Positions 35,391 through 57,478 of a DNA stretch of 64,000 nucleotides are shown here, piece after piece. The number at the start of each line of letters is the position of its first letter. Positions within the stretch are counted from its first letter, which is position 1. Origin of the DNA: Streptomyces ficellus (lineage in GTDB: Bacteria > Actinomycetota > Actinomycetes > Streptomycetales > Streptomycetaceae); assembly GCF_009739905.1 (NCBI RefSeq), contig NZ_CP034279.1, positions 1,488,001 to 1,552,000 of the forward strand, written 5' to 3'. The position numbers and the translations under genes are program-made. The notes below the pieces were generated by a model. It did no database searches and was not told the origin of the DNA. It worked only from the letters and a program-made list of their open reading frames with translations.

Positions 35391-36869
35391 TCACGCGGTG
35401 CGCTCGAACTTGGTGACGGCGTCGTCCTTGGCGACCTTGTCGCACTCCGCCTGCGTCTTCCGGATCCAGTCGGCGGCCTTCAGCTCGCCGGCGAGCAGCT
35501 GGCCGGTCAGGCCGCCGATCTTCTCGTCGGTGAGCGCCGGGTACCACTCCTGGAGCTGAAGGCTGATCAGGTTGTCCCCCGCCTCCTTGAACACCTTGCT
35601 GGCGGAGGCGAGGCCGGGCGAGAGGGTCATGCCCTCGGTGGCGTTCATGACGCACGTCAGGGACTTCACCTTCGTCGCGAAGTTCTGCGCGTGCTTCTTG
35701 GAGAGCATGATGCGCAGCAGCTCCATGCCGCCCGCCGGGTTCCTGCCCTTGGCGGCGACCAGGTACGGCTCGCTCGGCTCGGCACGCAGCGTGCCGTGCG
35801 GCATCTTGTCGCCGGTGCCGTCGAACAGCGCGCCGACGGCCATGCCGAAGTCGGCGGGCGTGGTCGGGGCCGCCTCGTTCTCGACCCAGGAGCCGTTGGG
35901 GATGAAGACGGCCTTGCCCTTGTTCCAGGCGGTCTGCGACTGGATGTGGGTGAGGCCCTGGCTGCCTTCGAGGAAGTACTTCTTGGCGGCGAGCTCCTCG
36001 TAGTGCTCGACGACCTCCTTGACCGCGTCGTTGGAGGTCCAGGCGCCGGGCTCCAGGTTGTCGATCGCGATCCACTTCTCCATGCCGCCGATCTTGGCGA
36101 TCTGGGCGAAGAGGTTGAAGTGGACGTAGTAGGGGAACTTGCCCGCGTACGTCCAGGGGGCGATGCCGGCCTTCTTGATCTCGCCGCAGAGCGTGACCAT
36201 CTCGGAGAGGGTCTTGGGGTACGTCCACCCCTTGTCGGCGAGCAGCTTCTGCGAGTACCAGGTGCCGTAGATGGTGAAGGCGTAGTAGAGCACGTCGAAC
36301 GTGTCGCCGTGCGTGCCCTTCTCGATGGTGCTCGGGTGGATGGTGTCGCGGACCTTCTTGGCCGGGTCGTCCATGGAGGGCGCGTCGAGCAGGGCGGCGA
36401 GGTCCTGGAGCTGGCCCTGGGTGGACAGCTTGTTCATGTCGAGGTGGTCGGCGCCGGAGTTGTCGATGACGTCCGGCGGGTTGCCGCCCGCGAAGCGCGG
36501 GGTGAGCTTGGGTCCGACCTGCTGGGTGCCGGTGTGCTTGACGTCGGCGCCGTAGGTGGACCGGTAGTCGGCCTCGGCGTCCTTGGCGTACTGGTCGCCC
36601 AGGCCGCCCTTGAAGATGAACGCCTCCAGCGGGGCGCCCTTGGCCACGCCGAGCGGGTTCTTCTCGGACTTGGGGCCGCCGGGGGCCTTCGTCTCCTTGG
36701 CGTTGCCGCCACCGCCGCCGGTGGCGCAGGAGGACAGGAAGCCCATGGTGGGCACGGTGATCAGGCCGATCGCGGCGGACCGCCTGATCAGATCGCGACG
36801 ACCGAGGCCCTCGCTGCCGTGGCCCTCGTGCTCGAGGCCCTCATCGGTGCGGGCGGAGGTGGATCCCAT
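35391..36869 (-). CDS. ngcE: GlcNAc/diacetylchitobiose-binding lipoprotein NgcE, probably Tat-exported
   Basis: A 492-aa extracellular solute-binding protein. The start ATG 36869 has GAGG 8 nt upstream. The signal combines a twin-arginine motif (GRRDLIRRSAAIG) with a lipobox (MGFLSSC, Cys near residue 49). This implies folding before Tat export and then lipid anchoring. A Gly-rich linker and the binding domain follow (ADVKHTGTQQVGPKLTPRF, YYAFTIYGTWYSQKLL, ADFGMAVGALFDGTGDKM). It matches, from memory, NgcE of S. olivaceoviridis and SCO6005, which bind N-acetylglucosamine and N,N'-diacetylchitobiose. A DasR-like operator overlaps its promoter, as expected for a chitin-sugar gene. Confidence 0.87.
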   Translation of the reverse strand: MGSTSARTDEGLEHEGHGSEGLGRRDLIRRSAAIGLITVPTMGFLSSCATGGGGGNAKETKAPGGPKSEKNPLGVAKGAPLEAFIFKGGLGDQYAKDAEADYRSTYGADVKHTGTQQVGPKLTPRFAGGNPPDVIDNSGADHLDMNKLSTQGQLQDLAALLDAPSMDDPAKKVRDTIHPSTIEKGTHGDTFDVLYYAFTIYGTWYSQKLLADKGWTYPKTLSEMVTLCGEIKKAGIAPWTYAGKFPYYVHFNLFAQIAKIGGMEKWIAIDNLEPGAWTSNDAVKEVVEHYEELAAKKYFLEGSQGLTHIQSQTAWNKGKAVFIPNGSWVENEAAPTTPADFGMAVGALFDGTGDKMPHGTLRAEPSEPYLVAAKGRNPAGGMELLRIMLSKKHAQNFATKVKSLTCVMNATEGMTLSPGLASASKVFKEAGDNLISLQLQEWYPALTDEKIGGLTGQLLAGELKAADWIRKTQAECDKVAKDDAVTKFERTA

Positions 36870-37024
36870 GCTCAAGTCCTCGCCTTCTCCAGGACTCAGG
36901 CGGTGTACCGGTCGCCCGTCCTGCTCGCCTGAGGCGAAGGGCCCCGCCACCGCGGTCATTTGCTGGGTCGTGCAGGTGCTGGGTGTTCACGCGAGTCCGG
37001 TCGTGCCATGCCACTCGGACGCCG

Positions 37025-37040
37025 ACAGGTATAGTCCACT
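37025..37040 (-). promoter_or_regulatory. DasR-responsive element (dre)-like operator before ngcE
   Basis: ACAGGTATAGTCCACT matches the dre consensus ACTGGTCTAGACCACT at 13 of 16 positions. It lies 156 bp upstream of the ngcE start. DasR is the GntR-type repressor of chitin and GlcNAc uptake in Streptomyces and is released by glucosamine 6-phosphate. Confidence 0.6.
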
Positions 37041-37057
37041 TCTCGTCATCTGAGCAA
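37028..37057 (-). promoter_or_regulatory. candidate ngcE promoter (-35 TTGCTC, -10 TATACC)
   Basis: On the minus strand TTGCTC (37057-37052) and TATACC (37033-37028) are 18 bp apart. The -10 element lies inside the dre-like site, so a bound repressor would block polymerase directly. The leader would be about 150 nt. Confidence 0.5.
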
Positions 37058-37241
37058 GATCGAAAGCAACTTTGGTCAGCAGTCTTTCCCGAGTTGAGAC
37101 CTCGGGGAAATGCCGCCGCGCCCGGTCGGCATTCATCGGCCACCGGTTTCGACAGAACGGCTGAATACGATCTTCCCGTACCGTCAACACCCTTGACACC
37201 GTGCGCCACTTACCTCCCTACTGGTTCCTGCGCAGATTGCC

Positions 37242-37255
37242 TGACAACGTTGTCC
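37242..37255 (+). promoter_or_regulatory. palindromic operator before the GH92 gene (LacI-type pattern)
   Basis: TGACAACGTTGTCC is a palindrome except for the last base (TGACAAC/GTTGTCA), centred on CG as in LacI-family operators. It lies 32 bp before the GH92 start. A TTGACA hexamer at 37193-37198 may be the -35 box, though no good -10 is seen. Confidence 0.55.
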
Positions 37256-37286
37256 AACGCGCTTTCGGCAGGAGGCAGGACGCGGG

Positions 37287-40200
37287 ATGCAGCCCAGACA
37301 GCCCAGCACGTCCGGACCCAGGACCCGTCACCGATTCCCCCGTACGGCCGCCCTCGTGGCGGCCGCTTCGCTGCTCGCGGCGGGCGCCCCACCGGCCACC
37401 GCCCTCGCCCTCCCCGGGCAACCGCCCACGACGGGAACGGAGTTCCGGTCGTCCTTCGAGGCGGACGAGCGCCCACCGGACTGGCGCGACACGGTGGAGA
37501 GGGGACCCGACGGCCGCGAGCGGGCGTCCGGGGTCGACGGGGGCTTCGCGGCGGGCATACCGGGGAACGTCACCGACCAGGTCACCGCTCTGCGCGCGAG
37601 CGGGGAGAACAGCGGGGCCGGCGAGACCAAGGAAAACCTGGTCGACCTCCAGCCGAGCACCAAATGGCTGACGTTCTCCCCCACCGCCTGGGTCGAATTC
37701 GACCTGGACGAACCCGTCAAGGTGGTGACGTACGCGCTCACCTCCGCCAATGACCACGCCCCGCGCGACCCACGGAACTGGACGCTCAAGGGTTCGGCCG
37801 ACGGCACGGACTGGACGGTGCTGGACACCCGCGAGGGCCAGACATTCGAAAAGCGCTTCGAGACCCGGACGTACGACTTCGACAATTCAACGGAGTACGC
37901 GCATTACCGGCTGGAGGTCACCGCGAACAACGGCGCCCCGGACATCGTCCAGCTCGCCGACGTCCAGTTCTCGAACGGTGACACCTCCACCCCCGTCCCG
38001 CCCGACATGCGCAGCCACGTCCACCGCGGCCCCGGCGGCTCCCCCACGGCCAAGGCCAACGCCGGGTTCACCGGGGTGCGGGCGCTGCGGTACGCGGGCA
38101 CGCACCGGCCGGGCGGCCGGGCGTACTCGTACAACAAGGTCTTCGACGTGCACACGGCCGTGCGGCGCGACACCGAGCTGTCGTACCGGATCTTCCCGTC
38201 CCTGCCGGAGACGGACCTGCACTACCCCGCCACCCACGTCGCGGTCGACCTGGCGTTCACCGACGGCACGTACCTGAGCGACCTGCGGGCGGCCGACAGC
38301 CACGGCGGGCCGCTCTCGCCCCGGGGGCAGGGCGCGGCCAAGCGGCTCTACGTCAACCAGTGGAACCAGGTGACGTCCGGAATCGGGTCGGTGGCGGCCG
38401 GGCGGACGGTGGACCGGATCCTGGTGGCGTACGACTCGCCCAAGGGCCCGGCGACGTTCCAGGGCTGGATCGACGACATCACGATCGGGCGCGCCGCACC
38501 GGCCGAGCGGCACCTGCGCCCCTCCGACCACGTCTCGACCGTACGGGGCACCCACTCCAGCGGGTCGTTCTCGCGCGGCAACGCCTTCCCCGCGACGGCG
38601 GTCCCCCATGGCTTCAACTTCTGGACGCCGGTGACCAACGCGGCGTCCAAGAGCTGGTTGTACGAGTACGCGCGCGGCAACAACGCCGACAACCTGCCCA
38701 CGGTGCAGGCATTCGCCGCCAGTCACGAGCCGAGCCCCTGGATGGGCGACCGCCAGACGTTCCAGCTGCTGCCGTCTGCGGCCACCGGTACCCCGGAGAC
38801 CGACCGGGTGCGCCGGGCGCTGCCGTTCCGCCACGAGAAGGAGACGGCGAGGCCGCACTACTACGGGGTGACCTTCGAGAACGGGATCAGGGCGGAGATC
38901 ACGCCGACCGACCACGCGGCGATGATGCGCTTCACCTACCCGGGCGCGGACGCGTCGGTCGTCTTCGACAACGTCACCGACGAGGGCGGGCTGACGCTCG
39001 ACCCGGCGACCCGGTCGTTCACCGGCTTCTCGGACGTCAGGAGCGGTCTGTCGACCGGCGCGACCCGGATGTTCGTGTACGGCGTCTTCGACGCGCCGGT
39101 CACCGGCTCGGCGTCGGCGGGCGTCAAGGGGCACCTGCGGTTCGACGCGGGCGCCGACCGGAGCGTGACGCTGCGGATGGCGACGTCCCTGATCGGGGTG
39201 GACCAGGCGAAGCGGAACCTGGCGGCGGAGATCCCGGCCGGCACCCGGTTCGAGCGGGTGCGGGAGCGGGCGCAGGACGCCTGGGACACGCTGCTCGGCC
39301 GGGTGACCGTGGAGGGCGCGACCCGCGACCAGCTGGTCACCCTGTACTCCAACCTCTACCGGCTCTACCTCTATCCCAACTCGGGCTTCGAGAGGGTCGG
39401 CGGGAAGAACCGGTACGCGAGCCCGTTCTCCCCGCGGACCGGCCCCGACACCCCGACGCACACCGGTGCGAAGATCGTGGACGGGAAGGTGTACGTCAAC
39501 AACGGCTTCTGGGACACCTATCGCACCACCTGGCCCGCCTACTCCTTCCTCACCCCGCGCAAGGCGGGCGAACTGGTGGACGGCTTCGTCCAGCAGTACA
39601 AGGACGGCGGCTGGATCTCCCGCTGGTCCTCCCCCGGCTACGCGGACCTGATGACCGGCACGTCGTCGGACGTGGCCTTCGCCGACGCGTACGTCAAGGG
39701 CGTGGACTTCGACGCGGAGGCGGCGTACGAGGCGGCGCTGAAGAACGCGACGGTGGTGCCGCCCTCGTCGGGCGTCGGCCGCAAGGGCATGGAGACGTCA
39801 CCGTTCCTCGGCTACGCCTCGACCGCGACGCACGAGGGCCTGTCCTGGTCGCTGGAGGGCTACCTCAACGACTACGGCCTGGCGAGGATGGCGGAGGTGC
39901 TGCACGAGAAGACCGGAAAGGCGCGCTACCGGGAGGAGGCCGCCTACTTCCGCGACCGGGCCCGCGCCTACGTCACGCTCTTCGACAAGGAGGCCGGCTT
40001 CTTCCAGGGCCGGGACCTCAAGGGCGGGTGGCGGGTGCCGTCGGCCTCGTACGACCCGAGGGTGTGGGGCTACGACTACACCGAGACCAACGGCTGGGGG
40101 TACGCCTTCACCGCCCCGCAGGACAGCCGGGGCCTGGCCAACCTCTACGGCGGCCGGGCCGGGCTGGCGAAGAAGCTCGACACCTACTTCGCCACGCCCG

Positions 40201-41120
40201 AGACCGCCTCGCCCGAGTTCGTCGGCTCGTACGGCAGTGTCATCCACGAGATGACGGAGGCGCGGGACGTGCGGATGGGCATGTACGGGCACTCCAACCA
40301 GGTGGCGCACCACGTCCCGTACCTGTACAATGCCGCCTCGCAGCCGTGGAAGACGCAGGAGAAGGTGCGCGAGGTGCTGTCCCGCCTCTACACCGGCAGC
40401 GAGATCGGGCAGGGCTACCACGGTGACGAGGACAACGGCGAGCAGTCCGCCTGGTGGCTGTTCTCGGCGCTCGGGTTCTATCCGCTGGTGATGGGGAGCG
40501 GGGAGTACGCGGTCGGCTCGCCGCTGTTCACCAAGGCGACCGTGCGGATGGACAACGGCCGCACGCTGGTGGTCAAGGCGCCGGAGAACAGCGCGCGGAA
40601 CGTCTACGTGCAGGGGCTGAAGGTCAACGGCGAGCGGTGGTCGTCCACGGCGCTGCCGCACGCGCTGCTCGCGCGGGGCGGGACGCTGGAGTTCGCCATG
40701 GGGCCGGAGCCCTCGGCGTGGGGCACGGGGCCGGGCGCGGCGCCCGTCTCCCTCACCCGCGACGACAAGGTGCCCTCGCCGCCGCGTGACGTGCTGGCGG
40801 GCGCGGGCGAGCTGTTCGACGACACCTCGGCGACGTCCGCCTCCATGGAGGGGGTGGAGCTGCCGGTCCCGGCGGGCGGTGTGCGGGCGGTGCGGTACAC
40901 GCTGACGTCGGCGGCGCGGGACGCGGCCCCGACGGGGTGGGTGCTCCAGGGGTCGCGGGACGGTACGCGGTGGACGGACCTGGACCGGCGGTCGGGCGAG
41001 TCGTTCGCCTGGGACCGGCAGACCCGGGTGTTCACCGTGTCCCGGCCGGGGACGTACGCGAGGTACCGGCTGGTGCCGGGCGCGGTGTCGGTGCTGGCGG
41101 AGGTGGAGCTGCTGCGCTGA
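37287..41120 (+). CDS. secreted GH92 alpha-mannosidase with F5/8 type C domains
   Basis: A 1277-aa exported enzyme. The signal peptide is RTAALVAAASLLAAGAPPATALA. A galactose-binding-like (F5/8 C) domain at about 95-235 (LQPSTKWLTFSPTAWVEFDL) precedes the GH92 region (about 400-1150). The GH92 motifs are GNAFPATAVPHGFNFWTPV, IHEMTEARDVRMGMYGHSNQ and GYHGDEDNGEQSAWWLFSAL. A second C-type domain closes the protein (about 1175-1277). Family members are calcium-dependent exo-acting alpha-mannosidases, mostly cutting 1,2 links of high-mannose N-glycans or fungal mannan. A scavenging role fits the neighbouring chitin-sugar and pentose importers. AGGAGG precedes the ATG. Linkage specificity cannot be read from sequence. 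Confidence 0.9.
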   Translation: MQPRQPSTSGPRTRHRFPRTAALVAAASLLAAGAPPATALALPGQPPTTGTEFRSSFEADERPPDWRDTVERGPDGRERASGVDGGFAAGIPGNVTDQVTALRASGENSGAGETKENLVDLQPSTKWLTFSPTAWVEFDLDEPVKVVTYALTSANDHAPRDPRNWTLKGSADGTDWTVLDTREGQTFEKRFETRTYDFDNSTEYAHYRLEVTANNGAPDIVQLADVQFSNGDTSTPVPPDMRSHVHRGPGGSPTAKANAGFTGVRALRYAGTHRPGGRAYSYNKVFDVHTAVRRDTELSYRIFPSLPETDLHYPATHVAVDLAFTDGTYLSDLRAADSHGGPLSPRGQGAAKRLYVNQWNQVTSGIGSVAAGRTVDRILVAYDSPKGPATFQGWIDDITIGRAAPAERHLRPSDHVSTVRGTHSSGSFSRGNAFPATAVPHGFNFWTPVTNAASKSWLYEYARGNNADNLPTVQAFAASHEPSPWMGDRQTFQLLPSAATGTPETDRVRRALPFRHEKETARPHYYGVTFENGIRAEITPTDHAAMMRFTYPGADASVVFDNVTDEGGLTLDPATRSFTGFSDVRSGLSTGATRMFVYGVFDAPVTGSASAGVKGHLRFDAGADRSVTLRMATSLIGVDQAKRNLAAEIPAGTRFERVRERAQDAWDTLLGRVTVEGATRDQLVTLYSNLYRLYLYPNSGFERVGGKNRYASPFSPRTGPDTPTHTGAKIVDGKVYVNNGFWDTYRTTWPAYSFLTPRKAGELVDGFVQQYKDGGWISRWSSPGYADLMTGTSSDVAFADAYVKGVDFDAEAAYEAALKNATVVPPSSGVGRKGMETSPFLGYASTATHEGLSWSLEGYLNDYGLARMAEVLHEKTGKARYREEAAYFRDRARAYVTLFDKEAGFFQGRDLKGGWRVPSASYDPRVWGYDYTETNGWGYAFTAPQDSRGLANLYGGRAGLAKKLDTYFATPETASPEFVGSYGSVIHEMTEARDVRMGMYGHSNQVAHHVPYLYNAASQPWKTQEKVREVLSRLYTGSEIGQGYHGDEDNGEQSAWWLFSALGFYPLVMGSGEYAVGSPLFTKATVRMDNGRTLVVKAPENSARNVYVQGLKVNGERWSSTALPHALLARGGTLEFAMGPEPSAWGTGPGAAPVSLTRDDKVPSPPRDVLAGAGELFDDTSATSASMEGVELPVPAGGVRAVRYTLTSAARDAAPTGWVLQGSRDGTRWTDLDRRSGESFAWDRQTRVFTVSRPGTYARYRLVPGAVSVLAEVELLR

Positions 41121-45846: not shown

Positions 45847-47376
45847 ATGGCAGACGACTACCTCGTACGCATCGGCAAGCTCATCCGTGACGCCCGGCAG
45901 CACCGCGGCTGGACGCAGACGCAGCTCGCCGAGGCGCTGGCCACAAGTCAGAGCGCCGTCAACCGCATTGAGCGCGGGAACCAGAACATCAGCCTTGAGA
46001 TGATCGCCCGGATCGGCGAGGCGCTCGACAGTGAAATCGTGTCACTCGGGTACGCGGGACCCATGCACCTCCGCGTAGTGGGCGGGCGCCGGCTCTCCGG
46101 CTCCATCGACGTCAAGACGAGCAAGAACGCGTGCGTGGCGCTGCTGTGCGCCTCGCTCCTCAACAAGGGCCGAACGACGCTGCGGCGGGTCGCCCGGATC
46201 GAGGAGGTCTACCGGCTGCTGGAGGTCCTCAACTCCATCGGCGTGCGCACCCGTTGGATCAACGACGGGATGGACCTGGAGATCGTCCCGCCCGCGCACC
46301 TCGACATGGCGGCCATCGACGCGGACGCGGCCCGCCGCACCCGGTCCATCATCATGTTCCTCGGCCCGCTGCTGCACCGGCTGCGCCAGTTCAAACTCCC
46401 GTACGCGGGCGGCTGCGACCTCGGTACGCGCACGATCGAGCCGCACATGATCGCCCTGCGCCGGTTCGGCCTGGACATCACCGCCACCGAGGGCCTGTAC
46501 CACGCGGAGGTGGACCGCCAGGTCACCCCGGACCGGCCGATCGTCCTGACCGAGCGCGGCGACACGGTGACCGAGAACGCGCTGCTCGCCGCCGCCCGCC
46601 ACAACGGCGTCACGGTCATCCGCAACGCCTCCTCCAACTACATGGTCCAGGACCTGTGCTTCTTCCTGGAGGCCCTGGGTGTACGGGTCGAGGGCATCGG
46701 CACCACCACCCTCACCGTGCACGGCGTGCCGGCCATCGACGTGGACGTCGACTACTCCCCCTCCGAGGACCCGGTCGAGGCGATGAGCCTGCTGGCCGCG
46801 GCGGTCGTCACCGAGTCGGAGCTCACGATCCGCCGCGTACCGATCGAGTTCCTGGAGATCGAGCTCGCGGTCCTGGAGGAGATGGGCCTCGACCACGACC
46901 GCACGGCCGAGTACGCCGCCGACAACGGCCGCACCCGGCTGGTGGACCTGACCGTCCGGCCCTCCAAGCTGGAGGCTCCGATCGACAAGATCCACCCGAT
47001 GCCCTTCCCGGGCCTGAACATCGACAACGTCCCGTTCTTCGCGGCGATCGCGGCGGCCGCCCAGGGCCAGACCCTCATCCACGACTGGGTCTACGACAAC
47101 CGGGCGATCTACCTCACCGACCTCAACCGCCTGGGCGGCCGCCTCCAGCTCCTGGACCCCCACCGCGTCCTCGTCGAGGGCCCCACCCGCTGGCGCGCCG
47201 CCGAGATGATGTGCCCGCCCGCCCTGCGCCCCGCGGTGGTCGTCCTGCTCGCCATGATGGCCGCCGAGGGGACGTCCGTGCTGCGCAACGTGTACGTCAT
47301 CAACCGGGGTTACGAGGACCTGGCGGAGCGCCTGAACTCGGTGGGCGCGCAGATCGAGATCTTCCGGGACATCTGA
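45847..47376 (+). CDS. XRE helix-turn-helix fused to UDP-GlcNAc 1-carboxyvinyltransferase (MurA-like)
   Basis: A 509-aa fusion. Residues 1-68 form an XRE/Cro-type DNA-binding domain (IRDARQHRGWTQTQLAEALA, SQSAVNRIERGNQNISLEM). Residues from about 74 form the two-lobed EPT fold of MurA. Family active-site residues appear conserved: Lys93-Asn94 (TSKNA), Cys190 and Arg195 (GGCDLGTRT), and Asp393 (PFPGLNID, aligned with the catalytic Asp of PYPGFPTD). It may therefore be an active enolpyruvyl transferase that also binds DNA, or a sensor using a MurA fold to read UDP-GlcNAc. An inverted repeat lies 11 bp upstream of the start. From memory the fusion is conserved near acnA in Streptomyces; an ordinary murA is expected elsewhere. 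Confidence 0.88.
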   Translation: MADDYLVRIGKLIRDARQHRGWTQTQLAEALATSQSAVNRIERGNQNISLEMIARIGEALDSEIVSLGYAGPMHLRVVGGRRLSGSIDVKTSKNACVALLCASLLNKGRTTLRRVARIEEVYRLLEVLNSIGVRTRWINDGMDLEIVPPAHLDMAAIDADAARRTRSIIMFLGPLLHRLRQFKLPYAGGCDLGTRTIEPHMIALRRFGLDITATEGLYHAEVDRQVTPDRPIVLTERGDTVTENALLAAARHNGVTVIRNASSNYMVQDLCFFLEALGVRVEGIGTTTLTVHGVPAIDVDVDYSPSEDPVEAMSLLAAAVVTESELTIRRVPIEFLEIELAVLEEMGLDHDRTAEYAADNGRTRLVDLTVRPSKLEAPIDKIHPMPFPGLNIDNVPFFAAIAAAAQGQTLIHDWVYDNRAIYLTDLNRLGGRLQLLDPHRVLVEGPTRWRAAEMMCPPALRPAVVVLLAMMAAEGTSVLRNVYVINRGYEDLAERLNSVGAQIEIFRDI

Positions 47377-48419: not shown

Positions 48420-50276
48420 TCAGTGCGGGGGCAGGATGCGGGTGTCCTCCGCGGGGCGGCCGCCCACGGTCAGGCCGGGCTCGGGGGCGCCGGGTGACGC
48501 GGGGGTGGTGAGCCAGGCCGTGAGGGCGCCGTCCGTGAGGACGGCCACCACGGCGGTGCCGGGCGGGACGGTCAGCTCGCAGCGCTCGTCGCCCACCGGT
48601 CCGGTGACCCGGTCGGTGCTCCGCGTGGAGTTGAACGCGGCGACGAACTCGGTGCGCCGAGCCCGGTCCGTCCGGCGCAGGACGGCGGCCCGGCCCCCGG
48701 TGCTGGTCCATGCCGCCGACGGCACGTCCGCGAGCAGTTCCTCCAGCCGCTCGGCCACCGCGTGGTCCGCGGGCGCGCCGTCGCCGGGGCGGAGCACCGC
48801 CACGGGGAGCCCGCCGGTGCCGCCGGGGACGGTGCCGTCGTCGCCGAGCCACTGGGGGTCGACCAGGAGGGATCGCCGCAGCAGGACGTCGTGGACGGCT
48901 TCGGCGGTCTGGCGCAGCGCGGTGTCCGTGCCGGGCGTCCAGGCCTCGGCCTCGGGCAGGGCGCGGTCGACGACCAGGACGGCGTCCCGTTCCAGTTCCC
49001 CGGCCAGCAGGTGGCCGCCGAACCGGTCGAGGAACGTGCTGAGCAGCCGCAGTCCCTGTGCCGTGGCGCCGGGCTCGCCGTTCTCGGTGGCGGGCGCGCC
49101 CGGGCAGTAGGGCGGGGCGTGGAGCGCGGGTTCCACTCCTTCGGCCAGGAGGCCCTGGGCGTCCATGTCGATGTCGGCGCCCCACGTGGAGGTGGCGCAC
49201 GCCGTGTAGACGCTCACCGTGCGGGAGCCGAGCATCAGCGCCAGGAGCGCGTTGAACACCGGGACGCGCGCCTCGGCGAAGCCGCTGTCCGTCCAGGTGA
49301 AGCCCCAGTTGGCTTCGAGGACGTCGGTACGGCCGAGCCGGATGCCGAGCAGGTGGGCGCGGAAGGACTCGGGGTCGGCGCTCGGGTTGCCCACCCATTC
49401 GGTGTGGCCCACGTGGTGTCCGGAGCCGGCGATGGCTCGGGTGCGCGCGGCCCAGGCGTCGACGGTGGGCTCGGGGCCGGCGACCGGCGCGAGCGGCACG
49501 TTGACGACCTTGGCGACTCCGTCCGGAAGGAGGCCGGCAAGCCAGTCCCACACGTCGGTGATGGCGTGGCCGGCCCACTGGGACCACAGTGTGCGCAGTT
49601 CCGGCGGCCACTGGGCGGCGTCGCCCGCCGCCTGGGGCGCCAGGTCCCCGACACCGCGGCCGGCCAGCCATTTCGCGAACTCGGCGCGTGCGGCCGGGCC
49701 GGCGTCCTGGCTGGTGATCGGCAGGTGGGCGTCACCGCAGATGCCCTCGTTGCCCAACTGGACCGCCACGACGGGCCCGTGCGGGGCGAGGGCCGGGGTG
49801 ATCACCCGGTCGGCCACGGCCCGCATCCAGACGGCGACCTCGTCGCGGACGTCCGGGTCGAACAGGCTGGGCAGCGGCTGGGCCTGGGAGGTCAGCGCCC
49901 GGCCGTGGAGCCCTGCGTAGGGGGCGCGGTCCGGGGTGCACAGCCGGTCCGGCAGGCCGCCGAGCTGGACCTCGGCGTGGATGAACGGCCCCGGCTTGAG
50001 CAGGACGCGCAGCCCGGCCGCGGCGGCGGCGTCGAGGAGGCCGGCCACGTCGCGCTGGGGGTCGGTGACTCCGGTGAAGTCGAAGGTGCGCTGCCCGTCG
50101 GTGACGGTCTCGTGGAAGCGCCACGGCAGGTAGCAGGAGACCACGTCGACGCCGAGTCCGCGCAGTTCGCGCAGGTTGGCGGCCCATCGGTCGGGGTGGG
50201 CCCGGTAGTAGGGGTACTCGCCGATGACGACCGGGCGGTCGAGGCCGGGAAGGTGGGAGGAGAAGGGAGGGTTCAC
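48420..50276 (-). CDS. GH35-like beta-galactosidase family protein
   Basis: A 618-aa glycoside hydrolase of clan A. The N-terminus (PVVIGEYPYYRAHPDRWAAN) and GLGVDVVSCYLPWRFHE fit GH35. The acid/base Glu177 is in VAVQLGNEGICG and a nucleophile candidate is in VLEANWGFTW. No signal peptide is evident, so the enzyme should act in the cytosol. GTG 50276 overlaps the stop of the dehydrogenase gene, making it the fourth gene of the aminotransferase operon. Roles that fit the context are removing a protecting sugar from a glycosylated product, or being an inhibitor-tolerant target copy. Both are inference, and a simple sugar-recycling role is possible. The GH35 motifs are divergent. Confidence 0.75.
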   Translation of the reverse strand: MNPPFSSHLPGLDRPVVIGEYPYYRAHPDRWAANLRELRGLGVDVVSCYLPWRFHETVTDGQRTFDFTGVTDPQRDVAGLLDAAAAAGLRVLLKPGPFIHAEVQLGGLPDRLCTPDRAPYAGLHGRALTSQAQPLPSLFDPDVRDEVAVWMRAVADRVITPALAPHGPVVAVQLGNEGICGDAHLPITSQDAGPAARAEFAKWLAGRGVGDLAPQAAGDAAQWPPELRTLWSQWAGHAITDVWDWLAGLLPDGVAKVVNVPLAPVAGPEPTVDAWAARTRAIAGSGHHVGHTEWVGNPSADPESFRAHLLGIRLGRTDVLEANWGFTWTDSGFAEARVPVFNALLALMLGSRTVSVYTACATSTWGADIDMDAQGLLAEGVEPALHAPPYCPGAPATENGEPGATAQGLRLLSTFLDRFGGHLLAGELERDAVLVVDRALPEAEAWTPGTDTALRQTAEAVHDVLLRRSLLVDPQWLGDDGTVPGGTGGLPVAVLRPGDGAPADHAVAERLEELLADVPSAAWTSTGGRAAVLRRTDRARRTEFVAAFNSTRSTDRVTGPVGDERCELTVPPGTAVVAVLTDGALTAWLTTPASPGAPEPGLTVGGRPAEDTRILPPH

Positions 50277-51307
50277 CCGCGCGCTCCGGCCGGTCCCGGG
50301 ACGAGTACGACCTTGAGTGCCGAGTACGGCGTGCCGGGGGCCGCGGCGAGGGCGGCGAACGCCTCGTCGTGCTCCTCCAGCGGGAAGCGGTGGGTGATCA
50401 GCTTCTCCAGCGGCAGCCACCGGGCGAGTTCGATCGCCTTGGGGAACAGCCTGCTGTTGTAGTCGCCGGCGCCGATGATCTGGAGGCCGCGCTGGAGGAT
50501 CTCCAGGGGCCGTACGGTCGCCGACGCGTTGCTGTTGTAGCCCATGACGACGACCCGGCCGCGGGTGGCGGCGTACTCCATGCTCTGTTCGAGCAGGCTG
50601 CCGACGGTGTCGATCACGACGTCACCGCGTCCGGTGAGGCCCTCCTCGTCGGGGGCGTGGACGCTGACCCGCCCGTCGTCGGTGTGGGAGAACACCTGGC
50701 GGCACAGTTCCTGGCGGTACGGGTCGGGTTCGGTCAGCAGCACCCGGGCGCCGTAGTGGTGGGCGGCCAGCGCGCACACCACGCCGACGGGGCCGCCGCC
50801 GACGACGACCGCCGTCTCACCGGCCTGGAGGCGGCCCGCCTCGATGTTGTTCAGGGCGCAGGCCAGGGGTTCGACCACCGACGCGCGGTCGAAGTCCATG
50901 CCGTCGGGCATGGGGTGGATGAACCGCTGGGGCAGCCGGATGTACTCGGCGAAGGCGCCGTCCAGGTCGAGGCCGACCTCGGTGCCCGCCTTGTTCTGGC
51001 AGAAGTCCCAGTGGCCCTCGAGGCAGGTGGGGCAACCGCCGCAGTAGAGCGTGGGGTTGATGATGACGCGGTCACCGGGCTTGTGGTCCGTCACGGCGGA
51101 GCCGGTGGAGTCGACGACGCCGACCGCCTCGTGTCCCATCACCACGCCGGGCTCGGCGGGGAACTTGCCGACCAGCACGCTGCGGTCGGTGCCGCACACC
51201 CCGGTCTGGACGACCCGCACGACGACGTCCGTGGGGGCGGTGGCCTCCGGCTTGGGGTGGTCGACGAGCGAGAGGGTGCGCCGTTCGTCGAGTATCAGGG
51301 CCTTCAT
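50273..51307 (-). CDS. zinc-dependent alcohol dehydrogenase, GutB1-like (azasugar dehydrogenase candidate)
   Basis: A 344-aa medium-chain dehydrogenase. Catalytic zinc ligands are Cys38 (GVCGTD), His59 and Glu60 (MGHEAVG); structural zinc cysteines are 89, 92, 95 and 103 (CGGCPTCLEGHWDFC). The nucleotide fold is VVVGGGPVGVVCALAA. It is nearest in style to sorbitol/polyol dehydrogenases. In the known azasugar pathway the equivalent enzyme (GutB1) oxidises the C6 hydroxyl of 2-amino-2-deoxy-mannitol, so that the amine can cyclise to mannojirimycin. It overlaps the phosphatase gene before it and the GH35 gene after it by 4 nt each. Substrate assigned by context only. Confidence 0.85.
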   Translation of the reverse strand: MKALILDERRTLSLVDHPKPEATAPTDVVVRVVQTGVCGTDRSVLVGKFPAEPGVVMGHEAVGVVDSTGSAVTDHKPGDRVIINPTLYCGGCPTCLEGHWDFCQNKAGTEVGLDLDGAFAEYIRLPQRFIHPMPDGMDFDRASVVEPLACALNNIEAGRLQAGETAVVVGGGPVGVVCALAAHHYGARVLLTEPDPYRQELCRQVFSHTDDGRVSVHAPDEEGLTGRGDVVIDTVGSLLEQSMEYAATRGRVVVMGYNSNASATVRPLEILQRGLQIIGAGDYNSRLFPKAIELARWLPLEKLITHRFPLEEHDEAFAALAAAPGTPYSALKVVLVPGPAGARG

Positions 51308-52263
51308 GCGGTGTCTCCCGTGGTCGGGGTGGTGGCGGTGGCCGGGATGTCCCACCGGATCGCGTCCAGGAGGTGCTTGTGCAGCTCGGGGGTGGCGGTC
51401 GCGACGCAGGACTTCTGGTTCATGGGGTCCAGGTCGAGCAGGGCGGTGGTCCCGAGGTCGTCGCCGTAGGCGTCGGTGATCGTCACTCCGCACTGCTTGG
51501 CGAGGTAGACCGCGGCGGCGATGTCGTACGGGAAGAGGTGGAGGATGGATCCGCGCCCGGCTGCCAGGAACTCGGCCTCGGTCCGCGGGTGGTCGCGCAG
51601 CACGCGGTTGCCGATGTCGACGTACGCGTCGAGCTGGCCGGTGATGATGCGGGAGATGGAGAAGGTGGCGCTGTTGAACACGAAGACACCGCCGGTGTTG
51701 GCCGACCGGTCCACCAGGTGCCCGTAGGCCGCGTTCATCAGGTGCATGGGGTGGCCGTTGAACTCGATCGACCAGAACATCCTCGCCGGGTCGGTCGTCC
51801 GGCTGAGCCGCGGCAGCCCGTGGCGGTAGCCGGAGCTGGACAGCCCCTCCTCGTCGTCGCCGTAGATCCAGGCGCCGCTCTTGATCTCCAGGAGGTGCGC
51901 GGCGGTGACGTCGGCCAGGGTCGGTGAGGCGGTGGTGAGCGGTGCCGCGGCGATGGACACCATGCCCATCTCCAGGCCGGCGGAGGTGGGGCGGGTGCCG
52001 TCGATGGGGTCGACGACCAGGACGTACCGGGGGTCGGGCGCGAGCTCGACCAGCGACCCGTCCTCGGTGTAGACGGCGAGGGGGATCTCGGCGTTCTCCC
52101 GCAGGTAGTCCAGTACGGCACGCTCGGCGATCTCGTCGACGTCGAACTGGGCGTCGCCGCCGGGTGAGTCGCCGTGCACCTGCCGGGCCAGTCCGCGGTC
52201 CGCGTAGGCCAGCAGTTCCTCGCGCACGTGCCGGCCGAGGCCGGTGAGGAGTTCCTTCATCAT
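51304..52263 (-). CDS. inositol monophosphatase-family phosphatase, Yktc1-like
   Basis: A 319-aa magnesium-dependent sugar phosphatase. The metal motif is VLVVDPIDGTRPT (Asp85, Asp88) and a further acidic motif is VYTEDGS (Glu67). The later Asp is in FPYDIAAAVYLAKQ, replacing the usual WDxAAG. In the azasugar pathway the IMPase-like Yktc1 removes the phosphate from 2-amino-2-deoxymannitol 6-phosphate between transamination and oxidation. The gene sits in the same middle position here. Its ATG overlaps the aminotransferase stop (ATGA), and its own stop overlaps the dehydrogenase start. Confidence 0.85.
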   Translation of the reverse strand: MMKELLTGLGRHVREELLAYADRGLARQVHGDSPGGDAQFDVDEIAERAVLDYLRENAEIPLAVYTEDGSLVELAPDPRYVLVVDPIDGTRPTSAGLEMGMVSIAAAPLTTASPTLADVTAAHLLEIKSGAWIYGDDEEGLSSSGYRHGLPRLSRTTDPARMFWSIEFNGHPMHLMNAAYGHLVDRSANTGGVFVFNSATFSISRIITGQLDAYVDIGNRVLRDHPRTEAEFLAAGRGSILHLFPYDIAAAVYLAKQCGVTITDAYGDDLGTTALLDLDPMNQKSCVATATPELHKHLLDAIRWDIPATATTPTTGDTA

Positions 52264-53528
52264 GACGACAGCTCCGCCCGGAACAGGTTCTCCAGGCGGT
52301 CGCAGAGCAGCTCGGCCTGGTCGAGGGTGAGGATCAGCGGCGGGCGGATCTTGAGCACGTTGCCGAATCCGTAGCGGGAGGTCCGCAGGATCAGCCCGTG
52401 CCGCATGGCCGCGCCGGCCAGGTGGTTGGTGAGCTTCACGGCCGGTTCGCCGTCGGGCTCGACGATCTCGAAGCCGATCATCAGGCCGACTCCGCGTACG
52501 TCGGCGATGGCCGGGTAGCGGGTCCGCATGTCGGCGAGACGGCCGAGTATGTAGTTGCCGGTGGCCCGTACGTTGGCGAGGAAGTCCGGCTGCCGGACGA
52601 TGTCGAGGGTGACGTTGGCCGCCGCGGCCGCGAGCAGGTTCGCCCCGTACGTGAAGGAGTGGTGGTTGGCCGGCAGGCCCGCCAGGCGCTCGTTGGTGAG
52701 GATCGCGGCGACCTGGGCGCCGGAGCCGCCGAGGCCCTTGGCGGTGGTGATGGCGTCGGGTTCGACACCGAAGTGCTGGGCGGCGAACATCTCGCCGGTG
52801 CGGCCGATTCCGGTCTGGATCTCGTCGAAGATCAGCACGATGTCGTGCTCGTCGCAGAAGGCGCGGAGCTTCTGGAAGTAGCCGTCCGGCGGGACGATGT
52901 TGCCGCCGTTGCCGGAGATCGGCTCGACCACGATCGCGGCGACCTGGCCGGTGCTCGCGTACTCCAGGAAGTCCTCGATGCGGTCGACGCACATCATTCC
53001 GCAGCTGCCGGCCTTCTGCCCGTAGAAGCAGCGGAAGCAGTACGGGTCCGGGACCTGGAGGGTGCGCGGGAAGAGGGAGGGGAACGGCTCCTTGCGGAAG
53101 GCGTTCCCGGACATCGAGGTCATCATCATGGTCTGCCCGAGGTGGCTGCGGAACAGCGAGATGACCTCGGAGCGCCCGGTGGCGTGCTGCGCCATCTTGA
53201 TGGCGCCCTCGTTGGCGGTGGATCCGCCGGAGACCTTGGGGTGCACCCGGGTGAGGTTGTCCGGGGAGACCTCCACGAGACGGCGCACCAGGCCGTTGAT
53301 CGGGTCGCTCTGCATGGAGGAGGTCAGGTGGGTGAAGAGGTCTAACTGCTCCTTCATCGCCGCGATGACCGCCGGATGCGAGTAGCCCAGGCTGAGGTTG
53401 AAGGTGGCGGAGGCGCAGTCGAGGTATTCCTTGCCGTCCTCGTCGTAGAGGTAGATGCCCTCGCCGCGCACCATCTTCTGGGCGCTGACGGGGTAGTAGA
53501 TGAAGTCACGTACGTCTGTGACGTCCAT
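52260..53528 (-). CDS. class III PLP aminotransferase, GabT1-like, with a TTA codon
   Basis: A 422-aa fold-type I aminotransferase. The PLP lysine is Lys264 (AITTAKGLGGSG) and the PLP-ring Asp is in LIFDEIQTGIGRTG. The phosphate loop is SGGSTANEGAIKMA. The CxxC pair PYCFRCFYG and SCGMMC is typical of this subclass. It is the first gene of the operon. In the azasugar pathway GabT1 aminates C2 of fructose 6-phosphate. AAGAAGGG lies 6 nt before the ATG. Leu62 is encoded by TTA (53345-53343), a codon read only by the developmentally controlled bldA tRNA in Streptomyces. Translation of the whole coupled operon should therefore depend on bldA. Other amino-sugar or diamine substrates remain possible. 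Confidence 0.87.
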   Translation of the reverse strand: MDVTDVRDFIYYPVSAQKMVRGEGIYLYDEDGKEYLDCASATFNLSLGYSHPAVIAAMKEQLDLFTHLTSSMQSDPINGLVRRLVEVSPDNLTRVHPKVSGGSTANEGAIKMAQHATGRSEVISLFRSHLGQTMMMTSMSGNAFRKEPFPSLFPRTLQVPDPYCFRCFYGQKAGSCGMMCVDRIEDFLEYASTGQVAAIVVEPISGNGGNIVPPDGYFQKLRAFCDEHDIVLIFDEIQTGIGRTGEMFAAQHFGVEPDAITTAKGLGGSGAQVAAILTNERLAGLPANHHSFTYGANLLAAAAANVTLDIVRQPDFLANVRATGNYILGRLADMRTRYPAIADVRGVGLMIGFEIVEPDGEPAVKLTNHLAGAAMRHGLILRTSRYGFGNVLKIRPPLILTLDQAELLCDRLENLFRAELSS

Positions 53529-54588: not shown

Positions 54589-55188
54589 TCAGGGCAGGTC
54601 GCTCAGGTCCTCCCTCAGGGCGGCGAGTGACGTGAAGCGGTGGCCGCGCATCCCCGCGGCCTCGGCGGCCAAGACGTTGTCCGTACGGTCGTCGACGAAC
54701 ACGATGTCCTCGGGCGGCAGGCCGAACGTCTTGCTGCACCAGTGGTAGGCAGCCGGTTCCGGCTTGGCGTGGCCTATCCGGCAGGAGAAGGCCAGGACCT
54801 CGAAGTGGCGCAGCCAGGGGTGCCGTCGCTCGTAGTCCGCCGCTAGGTCCTCGGGGATGTTCGAGAGCAGACCGATCCGGGTCCCGCCGGCGGCCAGTTC
54901 GCGGATGTACGCGGTCATGTCGTCGTCGACCTCGCCCCAGCTCGCGACGTCGGCCGCGACGAGTTCGGCGACGCGCCGCTCGTCGAACGTGGTGCCCACC
55001 GCCGCGGCCACCGCGCCCCAGTACTCCGCGGCGGACTGGTCGCCCCGGTCGTACGGGGGGCGCAGGGCCCAGTAGCCGTCCCAGAAGTCCGCGCCGTCGA
55101 CGGCGGCGGTCTGCTCCAGGCGGGCGCGGGACGAGGGCGACTGGAGGCGCGCGATGACGCCGAACATGTCGAAGAGCACAGCGGTCAT
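54589..55188 (-). CDS. HAD-family hydrolase (phosphatase-like)
   Basis: A 199-aa subclass I HAD hydrolase. The nucleophile region is VLFDMFGVIARL, where the second Asp of DxD is replaced by Phe (DMF). The usual acid Asp is therefore missing and phosphatase activity may be altered. Motif II is IGLLSNIPEDL (Ser), motif III Lys is in GHAKPEPAAY, and motif IV is DIVFVDDRTDNV. The cap domain (about 15-90) is helical. It lies 4 bp behind the MFS transporter gene, so the two are co-transcribed. A sugar phosphate substrate would suit its neighbours. Confidence 0.82.
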   Translation of the reverse strand: MTAVLFDMFGVIARLQSPSSRARLEQTAAVDGADFWDGYWALRPPYDRGDQSAAEYWGAVAAAVGTTFDERRVAELVAADVASWGEVDDDMTAYIRELAAGGTRIGLLSNIPEDLAADYERRHPWLRHFEVLAFSCRIGHAKPEPAAYHWCSKTFGLPPEDIVFVDDRTDNVLAAEAAGMRGHRFTSLAALREDLSDLP

Positions 55189-55192
55189 GGGG

Positions 55193-56428
55193 TCACGTCC
55201 GATCGGCGGGCACCGCTTCGGCCAGCGGCGACGGGGTGGTGGCGGGGTCGGCGTCGGCCGGGGCGGCCCTGGTGAGCCACACGCTGAGGACGACGCAGAT
55301 CATCGCCAGGCCGAACAGCAGCACGGGCACGGCCCGGACGCCGGAGTGCTCGATCGCGACTCCCAGCAGCGGCGGGAAGGCCACCCCACCGATCATGGAG
55401 GCCGCGATGACGTAGGCGCCGGCGCTCGCCACGGTCGGCACCGCGCGGTTCAGCCAGGGCAGGCAGGTCGGGAAGATGGGGGCGATGAACAGGCCGACAC
55501 CGATGTACGCGTACGGGGCCGCCGCCGGGATCGTGGCCAGGAGCAGGGAGCCCGCCATGCCCAGGCAGCAGGTGATGATGATCGCCGGCGCCGACCAGCG
55601 CAGGGTCAGGGGCACGGCGACGAAACGGCCCACGGTCATGGCGAGCCAGTACGCGGAGGTCGCGGTGGCCGCCGCCGCGGCGCCGTAGCCGAAGGTCTCC
55701 AGGTGGGTCGGTTCCCAGCCGCCCACCCCCGTCTCGATCGCCACGTGGAACACGTAGATGCCGATGAACGCCGCGACGATGGGCAGGACCCTGGACCGCT
55801 CGGGGCCCAGGTGCGCGGTGCTCTCGGGGGCCGGCTCCTTCTGGGCGACTCCGCCGAGCGTGACCATCAGCAGCACCGAGACGACCGCCGTGCCGCCGAA
55901 CACCCAGGTGTAGTTCTCCGCCCCGAGCCAGCCCACCAGCGCGGGCCCGGCGACCGCTCCGATGCCGAAGTGGGCGTTGAGCAGGTTCAGCATCGCGGTG
56001 CTGCGCCGGCCGAAGCCCACCGAGAAGAGCTGGTTGAGCCCGTAGTCGATGCCGCCGAAGCCGAGGCCGATGACGAACGCCGAGGCGAGGGACACCGGCC
56101 AGGCGGGCGACACCGCGAAGCCGAGCGCGCCGAGTGCCATCAGGGCGTAGGAGCCGCCGAGCAGCTGCCGGTTGCCGATCCTCCCCCGCAGCAGGTGGAA
56201 GACCAGCACGCCCAGGAGCGCTCCGACGAAGTGGGCGCTGAGCCCCAGGCCCGCCACGGCCGGGCTGATGCCGAACTGCTCCCGGAGGGCCGGGATGGCC
56301 GGCCCGTAGAACGCCTGCAGACCTCCGATCACCACGAAACCCACGCAGGACGCGACGAGGGCGGCGCGAGTGAACAGCGTGGGTGTGCTGTCCTCCCGCG
56401 AAGGGAGGGCCTGGTCGGGCGTGGCCAT
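55193..56428 (-). CDS. MFS transporter, FucP/sugar-permease-like
   Basis: A 411-aa membrane protein with about 12 predicted helices. Examples are FVVIGGLQAFYGPAIPALRE, FVIGLGFGGIDYGLNQLFSV and ALLVGWLG/YTWVFGGTAVV. The NALL-type loop LLNLLNAHFGIGAVAGPALVG resembles the fucose/glucose permease branch. ATG 56428 has AGGAGG 6 nt upstream, an ideal start. It could import a sugar or export an azasugar-like product. It is the first gene of an MFS-HAD operon divergent from the DeoR gene, with a perfect palindrome in the shared 291-bp promoter region. Confidence 0.85.
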   Translation of the reverse strand: MATPDQALPSREDSTPTLFTRAALVASCVGFVVIGGLQAFYGPAIPALREQFGISPAVAGLGLSAHFVGALLGVLVFHLLRGRIGNRQLLGGSYALMALGALGFAVSPAWPVSLASAFVIGLGFGGIDYGLNQLFSVGFGRRSTAMLNLLNAHFGIGAVAGPALVGWLGAENYTWVFGGTAVVSVLLMVTLGGVAQKEPAPESTAHLGPERSRVLPIVAAFIGIYVFHVAIETGVGGWEPTHLETFGYGAAAAATATSAYWLAMTVGRFVAVPLTLRWSAPAIIITCCLGMAGSLLLATIPAAAPYAYIGVGLFIAPIFPTCLPWLNRAVPTVASAGAYVIAASMIGGVAFPPLLGVAIEHSGVRAVPVLLFGLAMICVVLSVWLTRAAPADADPATTPSPLAEAVPADRT

Positions 56429-56595
56429 CGATGTCCTCCTGAGGATCCTGACGAGATGGGTGAGGGTGGCTCGGTGGACGCTGATCGGCGGGTACCGGTG
56501 CCCCGTGGCACTCGCCGGGCGGGTGCGGCCGGAGCGGAAACGGGGAGGGCTCCGGCCGCACCCGTTCACCAGGGGTGGAGAGAAAGCACACGGGG

Positions 56596-56615
56596 CGAGT
56601 GTGAGTACACACTCG
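56596..56615. promoter_or_regulatory. palindrome CGAGTGT-N6-ACACTCG between the MFS and DeoR genes
   Basis: Perfect 7-bp arms with a 6-bp centre (GAGTAC), 105 bp before the DeoR start and 168 bp before the MFS start. It is the best candidate operator for the DeoR-type regulator controlling both directions. Confidence 0.55.
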
Positions 56616-56719: not shown

Positions 56720-57478
56720 ATGAATGTCGCCGAACGCCACCGATTCATCCTGTCCCAGCTGACGGAGCGAAGCCGGGCCTCCGTGGCCGAACTCGCCCGC
56801 TCCGCGAAGACGTCGGAGATGACGATCCGCCGGGACCTGGAGCTGCTGGAGTCCAGGGGAGCGCTGCGGCGCGTCCACGGTGGAGCGGTGAGCACCCTGC
56901 TCAGCGGCGTGGAGCCGCCGTACGCCGTGCGGGCCATGGTGGGTGGCGACGCCAAGGCCAAGCTGGCCGACGAGGTGGTGCGGCTGCTGAACGACGGGGA
57001 GACGGTGGCCCTGGACACCGGGACGACCGCGGTCGCGGTCGCCCAGGCCATGGCGGGGCACCGGTTCACCGTCACCCCGCTGTCGCTGCACGCGGCGTTC
57101 GCGCTGTCAGAGAGCGAGGGCATCCGCCTGCTCGTGCCCGGCGGCCAAGTCCGGCCCGGCGAGCTGTCGTTCTACGGCGAGACGGCGCTGCGCACCTTCG
57201 AGGACCTGCGCTACGACACGTTCATCCTCGGGTGCTGCGGCATCGACGTGGCCAACGGCGCCACGGCGTACAACCTCGACGACGTCCATGTGAAGCGCAC
57301 CGCGGCGGCGTCGGCGCGCCGCATCATCCTGGTGGCCACCGCGGAGAAGCTGGGGCGGGTGGCGCTCGGCCGGATCTGTGCGGTCGAGCAGATCGACATC
57401 GTGGTGACGGACGCCCCGCAGGGCAACCCCGTGATCGAGGACCTGCGGGCGGCGGGAGTGAACATCCGGCACGTGTGA
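56720..57478 (+). CDS. DeoR/GlpR-family transcriptional regulator
   Basis: A 252-aa repressor-type regulator. It has the DeoR winged helix (about 1-58: ERHRFILSQLTERSRASVAE, SEMTIRRDLELLESRGALRRVHGGA) and the sugar-phosphate-binding DeoRC domain (DGETVALDTGTTAVAVAQAM, VPGGQVRPGELSFYG, FILGCCGIDVANGATAYN). Members sense phosphorylated sugars. A fructose 6-phosphate-type ligand would be fitting beside an aminotransferase thought to use that compound, but this is inference. It is divergent from the MFS-HAD operon, which is the most likely direct target. Confidence 0.88.
   Translation: MNVAERHRFILSQLTERSRASVAELARSAKTSEMTIRRDLELLESRGALRRVHGGAVSTLLSGVEPPYAVRAMVGGDAKAKLADEVVRLLNDGETVALDTGTTAVAVAQAMAGHRFTVTPLSLHAAFALSESEGIRLLVPGGQVRPGELSFYGETALRTFEDLRYDTFILGCCGIDVANGATAYNLDDVHVKRTAAASARRIILVATAEKLGRVALGRICAVEQIDIVVTDAPQGNPVIEDLRAAGVNIRHV

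What the first reader, a model, noticed from the sequence alone, without database searches (positions are those of the whole stretch)
50273..53528. Three-gene azasugar (deoxynojirimycin-type) biosynthesis signature
Seen: class III aminotransferase, IMPase-family phosphatase and zinc alcohol dehydrogenase in this order, with 4-nt overlaps. Known: the Bacillus azasugar genes gabT1-yktc1-gutB1 have the same families and order. They convert fructose 6-phosphate to mannojirimycin, on the way to 1-deoxynojirimycin. Inference: this strain makes a nojirimycin-type iminosugar, an alpha-glucosidase inhibitor.
Basis: partly seen in the sequence, partly recalled or inferred. Interest (0 to 1): 0.9.

Follow-up and report, generated by a model that had tools for sequence, protein, structure and literature searches.

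The report
Azasugar operon with unnoticed glycosidase-like gene
This Streptomyces carries the same compact gene set as the strain known to make the sugar-mimic nojirimycin, and the set includes an overlooked fourth gene, a sugar-cleaving-type enzyme, that is tightly coupled to the three known ones and whose role is an open, testable question.

Summary
On the minus strand a class III aminotransferase, an IMPase-family phosphatase and a zinc alcohol dehydrogenase follow each other with exact 4-nt overlaps. The azasugar reading is well supported at pathway level: the aminotransferase matches 15 of 16 fixed positions of the published azasugar consensus, the trio spans 3,256 bp (published mean for the canonical Streptomyces cluster 3,251 bp), and the whole locus has the same gene order in a genome whose length, 9,022,916 bp, is exactly that of Streptomyces nojiriensis JCM 3382, a proven nojirimycin and deoxynojirimycin producer. 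This strain's product is untested; the trio alone should stop at mannojirimycin. That overlap is conserved in the window and 16 related loci, including S. nojiriensis, Actinopolyspora, Actinoplanes and Bradyrhizobium. In 394 Streptomyces genomes strong GH35 homologues occur in only 8, all with the trio. The predicted fold is closest to a GH35 beta-1,2-glucosyltransferase, with the inferred active-site residues invariant. No paper found here reports this link. It is a known kind of cluster; the GH35 gene is the new, testable part.

The parts
52260..53528 (-). Class III aminotransferase (GabT1-like), 422 aa
   Evidence: PF00202 E=8e-93; azasugar consensus 15/16 positions, PLP lysine K264; 83% identical to the S. 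nojiriensis-type protein
51304..52263 (-). IMPase-family phosphatase (YktC1-like), 319 aa
   Evidence: PF00459 E=2e-13; VDPIDGT metal-binding motif conserved in 21 homologues; ATGA overlap with the aminotransferase gene
50273..51307 (-). Zinc-dependent aminopolyol dehydrogenase (GutB1-like), 344 aa
   Evidence: PF08240/PF00107; GICGTD, GHE and four-Cys motifs conserved; 32% identity to P. polymyxa GutB1; ATGA overlap
48420..50276 (-). Fourth gene of the operon: divergent GH35-type protein, 618 aa, no signal sequence apparent by eye
   Evidence: PF01301 75 bits; GTGA 4-nt overlap with the dehydrogenase gene, kept in 16 related loci; model pLDDT 84.9, best PDB match IaSGT
54589..55188 (-). HAD-family hydrolase
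   Evidence: PF00702; same place in the Streptomyces and Actinopolyspora loci
55193..56434 (-). MFS transporter, probable azasugar exporter (start codon uncertain)
   Evidence: PF07690; conserved in related loci, and an MFS gene directly follows GH35 in Bradyrhizobium
56720..57478 (+). DeoR-family regulator, divergent from the MFS gene
   Evidence: PF00455/PF08220; conserved in the Streptomyces loci
56597..56614 (.). Inverted repeat GAGTGTG-AGTA-CACACTC, putative DeoR operator
   Evidence: Core GTGTGAGTACACA once in the window and once in each of L001, L002, L003, L011, L107, each time in the stretch between the DeoR and MFS/HAD genes; binding not tested

Best explanation
A seven-gene azasugar locus of the S. 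nojiriensis type. The aminotransferase aminates C2 of fructose 6-phosphate, the IMPase-type phosphatase removes the phosphate to give 2-amino-2-deoxymannitol, and the zinc dehydrogenase oxidises C6 so that the molecule cyclises to a piperidine azasugar (mannojirimycin, perhaps later nojirimycin/DNJ through unlinked enzymes). The MFS protein exports it under DeoR control. The fourth gene, coupled to the dehydrogenase by a 4-nt overlap, encodes a cytosolic retaining GH35-type enzyme that most likely handles the azasugar as a beta-glycoside (attaching or removing a beta-linked sugar, for protection or release). Shown here: the genes, their order and overlaps, signature residues, shared gene order with a proven producer, co-occurrence and predicted fold. 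Inferred: the reaction steps, the product, export, regulation and the GH35 substrate. The confidence given is for the azasugar-operon reading as a whole; for the azasugar-glycoside role of GH35 alone it is about 0.35.
For: Families and order as in known clusters (PMC8382821). Azasugar consensus met at 15/16 positions, absent from aminocyclitol-type relatives. Same gene order DeoR-MFS-HAD-AT-IMPase-ADH-GH35 in the 9,022,916-bp genome that matches S. nojiriensis JCM 3382. Trio length 3,256 bp against a published mean of 3,251 bp. Aminotransferase tree. GH35: conserved 4-nt overlap, 8 of 8 strong homologues in Streptomyces lie beside the trio, best structural match IaSGT, which has been crystallised with DNJ, key residues invariant in 17 homologues, dN/dS 0.31-0.37.
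Against: No chemistry or expression data. Dehydrogenase only 32% identical to P. polymyxa GutB1. The IMPase could not be compared with Bacillus YktC1 directly; the literature reports no BLAST match between the B. velezensis and S. subrutilus phosphatases. S. nojiriensis has two clusters and which one makes nojirimycin was not shown by mutation. GH35 is missing from the S. rimosus clade and from Bacillus and Paenibacillus, so it is not essential for azasugar formation; its closest structural match has only about 12% identity; the nucleophile assignment is disputed by hhalign.
Confidence: 0.8

Rival explanations
1. Azasugar operon as above, but the GH35 protein is an inhibitor-tolerant spare glycosidase (self-resistance) that stands in for a cell enzyme blocked by the azasugar, and does not act on the azasugar.
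For: Tight coupling to the biosynthetic genes; the inferred catalytic residues are conserved; the genome has two ordinary GH35 enzymes that could be targets.
Against: Divergent from the two ordinary GH35 proteins; missing from trio-bearing S. rimosus relatives, which would also need protection.
Confidence: 0.2
2. Azasugar operon in which the GH35 protein feeds the pathway by splitting an imported beta-glucoside to glucose, giving fructose 6-phosphate.
For: Intracellular GH35 related to a beta-glucoside-active enzyme; DeoR regulators often sense sugar phosphates (general knowledge).
Against: No uptake system for a glucoside in the locus; the MFS gene looks like an exporter; a general metabolic supply does not explain a translational overlap kept in 17 loci.
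Confidence: 0.15
3. The trio is a true azasugar cluster but makes another azasugar than nojirimycin/DNJ, for example mannojirimycin, deoxymannojirimycin or a glycoside.
For: The trio ends at the manno configuration and no epimerase or reductase is linked (PMC8382821); S. subrutilus is reported to make both DNJ and 1-deoxymannojirimycin (reference titles in PMC8466323); the GH35 gene suggests a glycoside step.
Against: The closest characterised locus belongs to a strain making nojirimycin and DNJ.
Confidence: 0.35
4. The operon belongs to an aminocyclitol (validamycin/kirkamide-type) pathway, whose aminotransferases are related.
For: ValM lies in the same aminotransferase similarity cluster (PMC8382821); Paraburkholderia relatives are 51-52% identical.
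Against: Azasugar motif present here and altered in those relatives; separate clades; no GT20 gene found next to this locus, whereas one sits beside the P. kirkii gene; the genome's DHQ-synthase-family genes are all far away.
Confidence: 0.04

Closest known systems
Canonical gabT1-yktC1-gutB1 cluster of Streptomyces nojiriensis JCM 3382 (PMC8466323)
   Same: Same gene families and order; seven genes DeoR-MFS-HAD-AT-IMPase-ADH-GH35 syntenic, 57-83% identity; trio length near the published mean; ADH/GH35 4-nt overlap kept
   Different: Window genome shows no second aminotransferase of this kind; proteins diverged; production shown only for JCM 3382. Strain identity inferred from the exact genome length
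Bacillus velezensis FZB42 gabT1-yktC1-gutB1 (PMC8382821)
   Same: Same three families in the same order, MFS gene nearby (literature)
   Different: No GH35 gene reported; dehydrogenase and phosphatase of the Streptomyces type diverge strongly from it (published values for S. subrutilus: 33% and no BLAST match); sequences not fetched here
Paenibacillus polymyxa azasugar cluster (L095)
   Same: Aminotransferase 46-47% identical with the azasugar motif, MFS gene next to it
   Different: Order AT-dehydrogenase-HAD phosphatase; dehydrogenase 32% identical; no GH35 annotated
IaSGT, GH35 beta-1,2-glucosyltransferase of Ignavibacterium album (PMC8861115)
   Same: Best fold and profile match of the fourth gene; no signal peptide; acid/base and inferred -1-site residues conserved
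   Different: About 12% identity over the fold alignment; position of Leu100 is an invariant His here; C-terminal part differs; activity unknown
Aminocyclitol-pathway aminotransferases (ValM/kirkamide type; L016-L018)
   Same: Related class III aminotransferase (51-52% identity)
   Different: No SGNxFR motif, GT20 gene beside the P. kirkii copy, separate clade

Membership tests
Bacterial azasugar three-gene cluster | Class III aminotransferase, phosphatase (PF00459 or HAD) and zinc dehydrogenase encoded side by side | tested here: met
   Pfam, 4-nt overlaps
Bacterial azasugar three-gene cluster | Aminotransferase consensus SGNXFRXXXFPN...LXVPXPYCXRC | tested here: met
   15 of 16 fixed positions; Asn to Ser at one, spacer 5 residues; S. 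nojiriensis-type protein has the Asn
Bacterial azasugar three-gene cluster | Aminotransferase at least 40% identical to those of known producers | tested here: met
   46% to P. polymyxa, 83% to the S. nojiriensis-type genome
Bacterial azasugar three-gene cluster | Aminotransferase accepts fructose 6-phosphate; an azasugar is made | not testable with these tools
   Needs enzyme assay and mass spectrometry
Canonical Streptomyces azasugar cluster (S. nojiriensis type) | Order gabT1-yktC1-gutB1 without interleaved genes, about 3.25 kb | tested here: met
   3,256 bp against a mean of 3,251 bp; syntenic with L114
Aminocyclitol (validamycin/kirkamide) cluster | Sugar-phosphate cyclase or GT20-type gene beside the aminotransferase | tested here: not met
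   No such gene among the neighbours scanned; DHQ-synthase-family genes lie more than 0.5 Mb away
Glycoside hydrolase family 35 | GH35 domain with catalytic acid/base Glu | tested here: met
   PF01301 75.1 bits against cut-off 27, residues 16-177 only; Glu177 invariant in 17 homologues
Glycoside hydrolase family 35 | Catalytic nucleophile Glu | tested here: inconclusive
   Strand order and spacing favour Glu321, invariant; hhalign pairs Glu293, which is Ser in three relatives
IaSGT-type beta-1,2-glucosyltransferase | Subsite -1 set Y52, E102, N175, E176, N275, E343, Y378 | tested here: inconclusive
   First four aligned directly; last three inferred from strand order and spacing; all invariant. 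Activity untested
GH35 exo-beta-D-glucosaminidase (GlmA) | Asp at the amino-group position (Asp178 in TkGlmA) | tested here: not met
   Asn176 in all 17 homologues (PMC8861115)

The most novel reading that the evidence does not exclude
Actinobacterial nojirimycin-type clusters are four-gene, not three-gene, units: a dedicated cytosolic GH35-type transglycosidase/glycosidase puts a beta-linked sugar on the azasugar or takes it off, so that the cell makes or holds the inhibitor as a masked glycoside, an unrecognised self-protection or release step in azasugar biosynthesis.
Probability: 0.35. Interest if true: 0.75.

Novelty: new member of a known kind. Interest (0 to 1): 0.5.

Why it matters
Azasugars are the parents of diabetes and lysosomal-storage drugs; the steps after mannojirimycin and the natural function of the molecules are not established (PMC8382821), and how producers protect themselves is, as far as I know, unknown. 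A gene locked by a conserved 4-nt overlap to the dehydrogenase gene, present in the classic nojirimycin producer and found as the same four-gene unit in two phyla, gives a concrete deletion and enzyme target for those questions. It also offers a marker (trio plus GH35) for finding nojirimycin-type loci in genomes.

Tried and rejected
Direct comparison with Bacillus GabT1/YktC1/GutB1: not possible; no Bacillus chromosome could be reached (one genome-contig scan; 'of' needs a genome handle), so P. polymyxa (L095) and the S. nojiriensis-type genome (L114) served as references. Viral contigs: nothing. PDB sequence search for a solved azasugar aminotransferase: only distant class III enzymes. NCBIfam: no family specific for the trio reached its cut-off. 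Reading the Ser at position 293 in three relatives as a dead nucleophile: set aside, because strand order and spacing favour Glu321 as nucleophile, though hhalign disagrees. A DeoR operator upstream of the aminotransferase: not found; the conserved repeat lies only between DeoR and MFS. Aminocyclitol reading: rejected on motif, tree and context. Exo-glucosaminidase reading of GH35: rejected (Asn for Asp).

Full report
What is there. The window lies in a complete 7.08-Mb single-contig chromosome, a Streptomyces by its named closest relatives. On the minus strand four genes form one tightly packed operon: class III aminotransferase 53528-52260, IMPase-family phosphatase 52263-51304, zinc alcohol dehydrogenase 51307-50273, and a GH35-like gene 50276-48420. 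All three junctions are 4-nt overlaps: ATGA, ATGA, GTGA. Upstream lie a HAD hydrolase (55188-54589), an MFS transporter (about 56434-55193) and a divergent DeoR regulator (56720-57478). The genes scanned further out are mostly housekeeping or carbohydrate genes (aconitase, DXP synthase, RecQ, a GH92 gene with an ABC transporter).

Is it an azasugar cluster? Beal and Horenstein (PMC8382821) define the bacterial three-gene cluster by exactly these families. They report that the order aminotransferase-phosphatase-dehydrogenase with an IMPase-type phosphatase is that of the Bacillus DNJ producers, and that Streptomyces phosphatases are also PF00459, whereas Chitinophaga (which makes DAB-1) and Paenibacillus have another order and HAD phosphatases. 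Their aminotransferase consensus is met at 15 of 16 fixed positions in the window protein. The three Paraburkholderia/Caballeronia relatives read SGFSTHR at the same place; the one locus of theirs that I examined has a GT20 gene beside the aminotransferase, as expected of aminocyclitol pathways. In a maximum-likelihood tree the window protein falls in a 19-row clade (96/95) that holds all the trio-plus-GH35 loci; the aminocyclitol-type proteins form a separate clade. Long branches join the Paenibacillus and aminocyclitol rows, so the deep order is unsure.

Link to a proven producer. Park et al. (PMC8466323) found nojirimycin and DNJ in S. nojiriensis JCM 3382. They reported that the canonical cluster averages 3,251 bp (here 3,256 bp), and named JCM 3382 and two S. 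subrutilus strains as having a canonical and a second, 'disordered' cluster. I therefore take it to be that strain; this is inference from length and gene content. Its canonical locus (L114) has DeoR, MFS, HAD, AT, IMPase, ADH and GH35 in the same order, with 68, 71, 58, 83, 75, 74 and 57% identity. G903 (7.60 Mb, also two loci; probably S. subrutilus, inferred) and G985 show the same.

The fourth gene. The start of the GH35 gene overlaps the dehydrogenase stop by exactly 4 nt in the window and in all 16 related loci where I compared them: Streptomyces, Actinopolyspora, Actinoplanes, Jidongwangia and Bradyrhizobium jicamae. In Bradyrhizobium an MFS gene follows directly. In 394 Streptomyces genomes the IMPase (E<1e-50) occurs in 14, of which 10 have the trio side by side; strong GH35 homologues (E<1e-100) occur in 8 genomes, all among those 10. 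Ignoring kinship, chance would give this with probability about 3e-15; kinship makes that figure too optimistic, but the link also holds in distant genera. In 397 actinobacterial genomes only the window's own had a match at E<1e-30. The S. rimosus/S. monomycini clade has the trio without GH35, which its place in the tree suggests is a loss; no GH35 gene is annotated next to the Paenibacillus cluster or reported for Bacillus. All four genes show dN/dS of 0.08-0.37.

What the GH35 protein is. The AlphaFold model (9 sequences, mean pLDDT 84.9, pTM 0.89) matches best the GH35 beta-1,2-glucosyltransferase IaSGT (E 2.7e-20, TM about 0.68 on the query), including its complex with DNJ, then archaeal exo-glucosaminidases, then GH42 galactosidases. 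A profile search agrees. IaSGT's -1-site residues are known (PMC8861115). The equivalents of Y52, E102, N175 and E176 align directly. Those of N275, E343 and Y378 follow from strand order in the model and from spacing (N259-E293-E321-Y357: 34/28/36, against N275-D309-E343-Y378: 34/34/35). All seven are invariant in 17 homologues. Asn rather than Asp at the 2-position argues against a glucosaminidase. One disagreement remains: hhalign against ordinary GH35 pairs Glu293 with the nucleophile, and Glu293 is Ser in three relatives. The genome has two ordinary GH35 enzymes elsewhere, so this is a separate, divergent type. No N-terminal signal sequence is apparent by eye, so I take it to be cytosolic.

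How it probably works. Aminotransferase, phosphatase and dehydrogenase turn fructose 6-phosphate into an oxo-aminopolyol that cyclises to mannojirimycin (described for the Bacillus enzymes, PMC8382821; inferred here). The further steps to nojirimycin/DNJ were not known to be clustered with the trio in any organism (PMC8382821). The GH35 protein most likely acts on the azasugar or is tolerant to it. A beta-glycosyl masking or unmasking step is my first choice, because a nucleophile mutant of IaSGT holds DNJ in both donor and acceptor sites; a tolerant spare glycosidase is the main rival. MFS export and DeoR control, possibly through the conserved repeat at 56597-56614, complete the unit.

Literature. 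Six full-text searches gave no report of a glycosidase gene tied to Streptomyces azasugar clusters; the S. nojiriensis paper mentions none in its main text. Subscription papers and supplements were not available, so priority is not certain.

Verdict. The azasugar cluster is a further member of a known kind, with its counterpart in the type nojirimycin producer. The conserved GH35 partner, unreported as far as I could search, is the part worth testing.

Noticed in passing
window 30799-41120: GH92 (alpha-mannosidase-family) gene of 1,277 aa next to a ROK regulator and ABC sugar-transport genes, about 7 kb beyond the GH35 gene; GH92 enzymes could be targets of manno-configured azasugars (speculation).
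   Followed up: no
window 45847-47376: EPSP-synthase-family (MurA-like) enzyme with an N-terminal helix-turn-helix domain; a close relative lies near the azasugar locus in S. rimosus (L003), which suggests the locus sits at the same chromosomal place there.
   Followed up: partly
window 6258-7571: MbnB/TglH/ChrH-family RiPP-modifying enzyme; possible unexplored peptide natural-product locus.
   Followed up: no
L098 8649-9572 (minus strand): In this 'disordered' Streptomyces locus the aminotransferase-IMPase pair is followed, with a short overlap, by an AurF-type N-oxygenase gene, suggesting an N-oxidised azasugar-like product.
   Followed up: no
L009, L010 around 10000-14500: Plant-associated Clavibacter and Rathayibacter carry close aminotransferase relatives (69-71%) with the SGNAFR motif but no IMPase of this type found nearby; in L009 HAD genes lie just downstream.
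   Followed up: partly
L008, L012, L014: Cyanobacterial (Brasilonema, Cylindrospermum) aminotransferase relatives with the azasugar motif, one beside an IMPase gene and one beside a glucokinase gene: possible azasugar-like clusters in cyanobacteria.
   Followed up: no
L119 6001-7272: Nonomuraea gerenzanensis (a chromosome-size record filed under plasmids) has a 33% GH35 relative with none of the trio genes detected within 6 kb.
   Followed up: no
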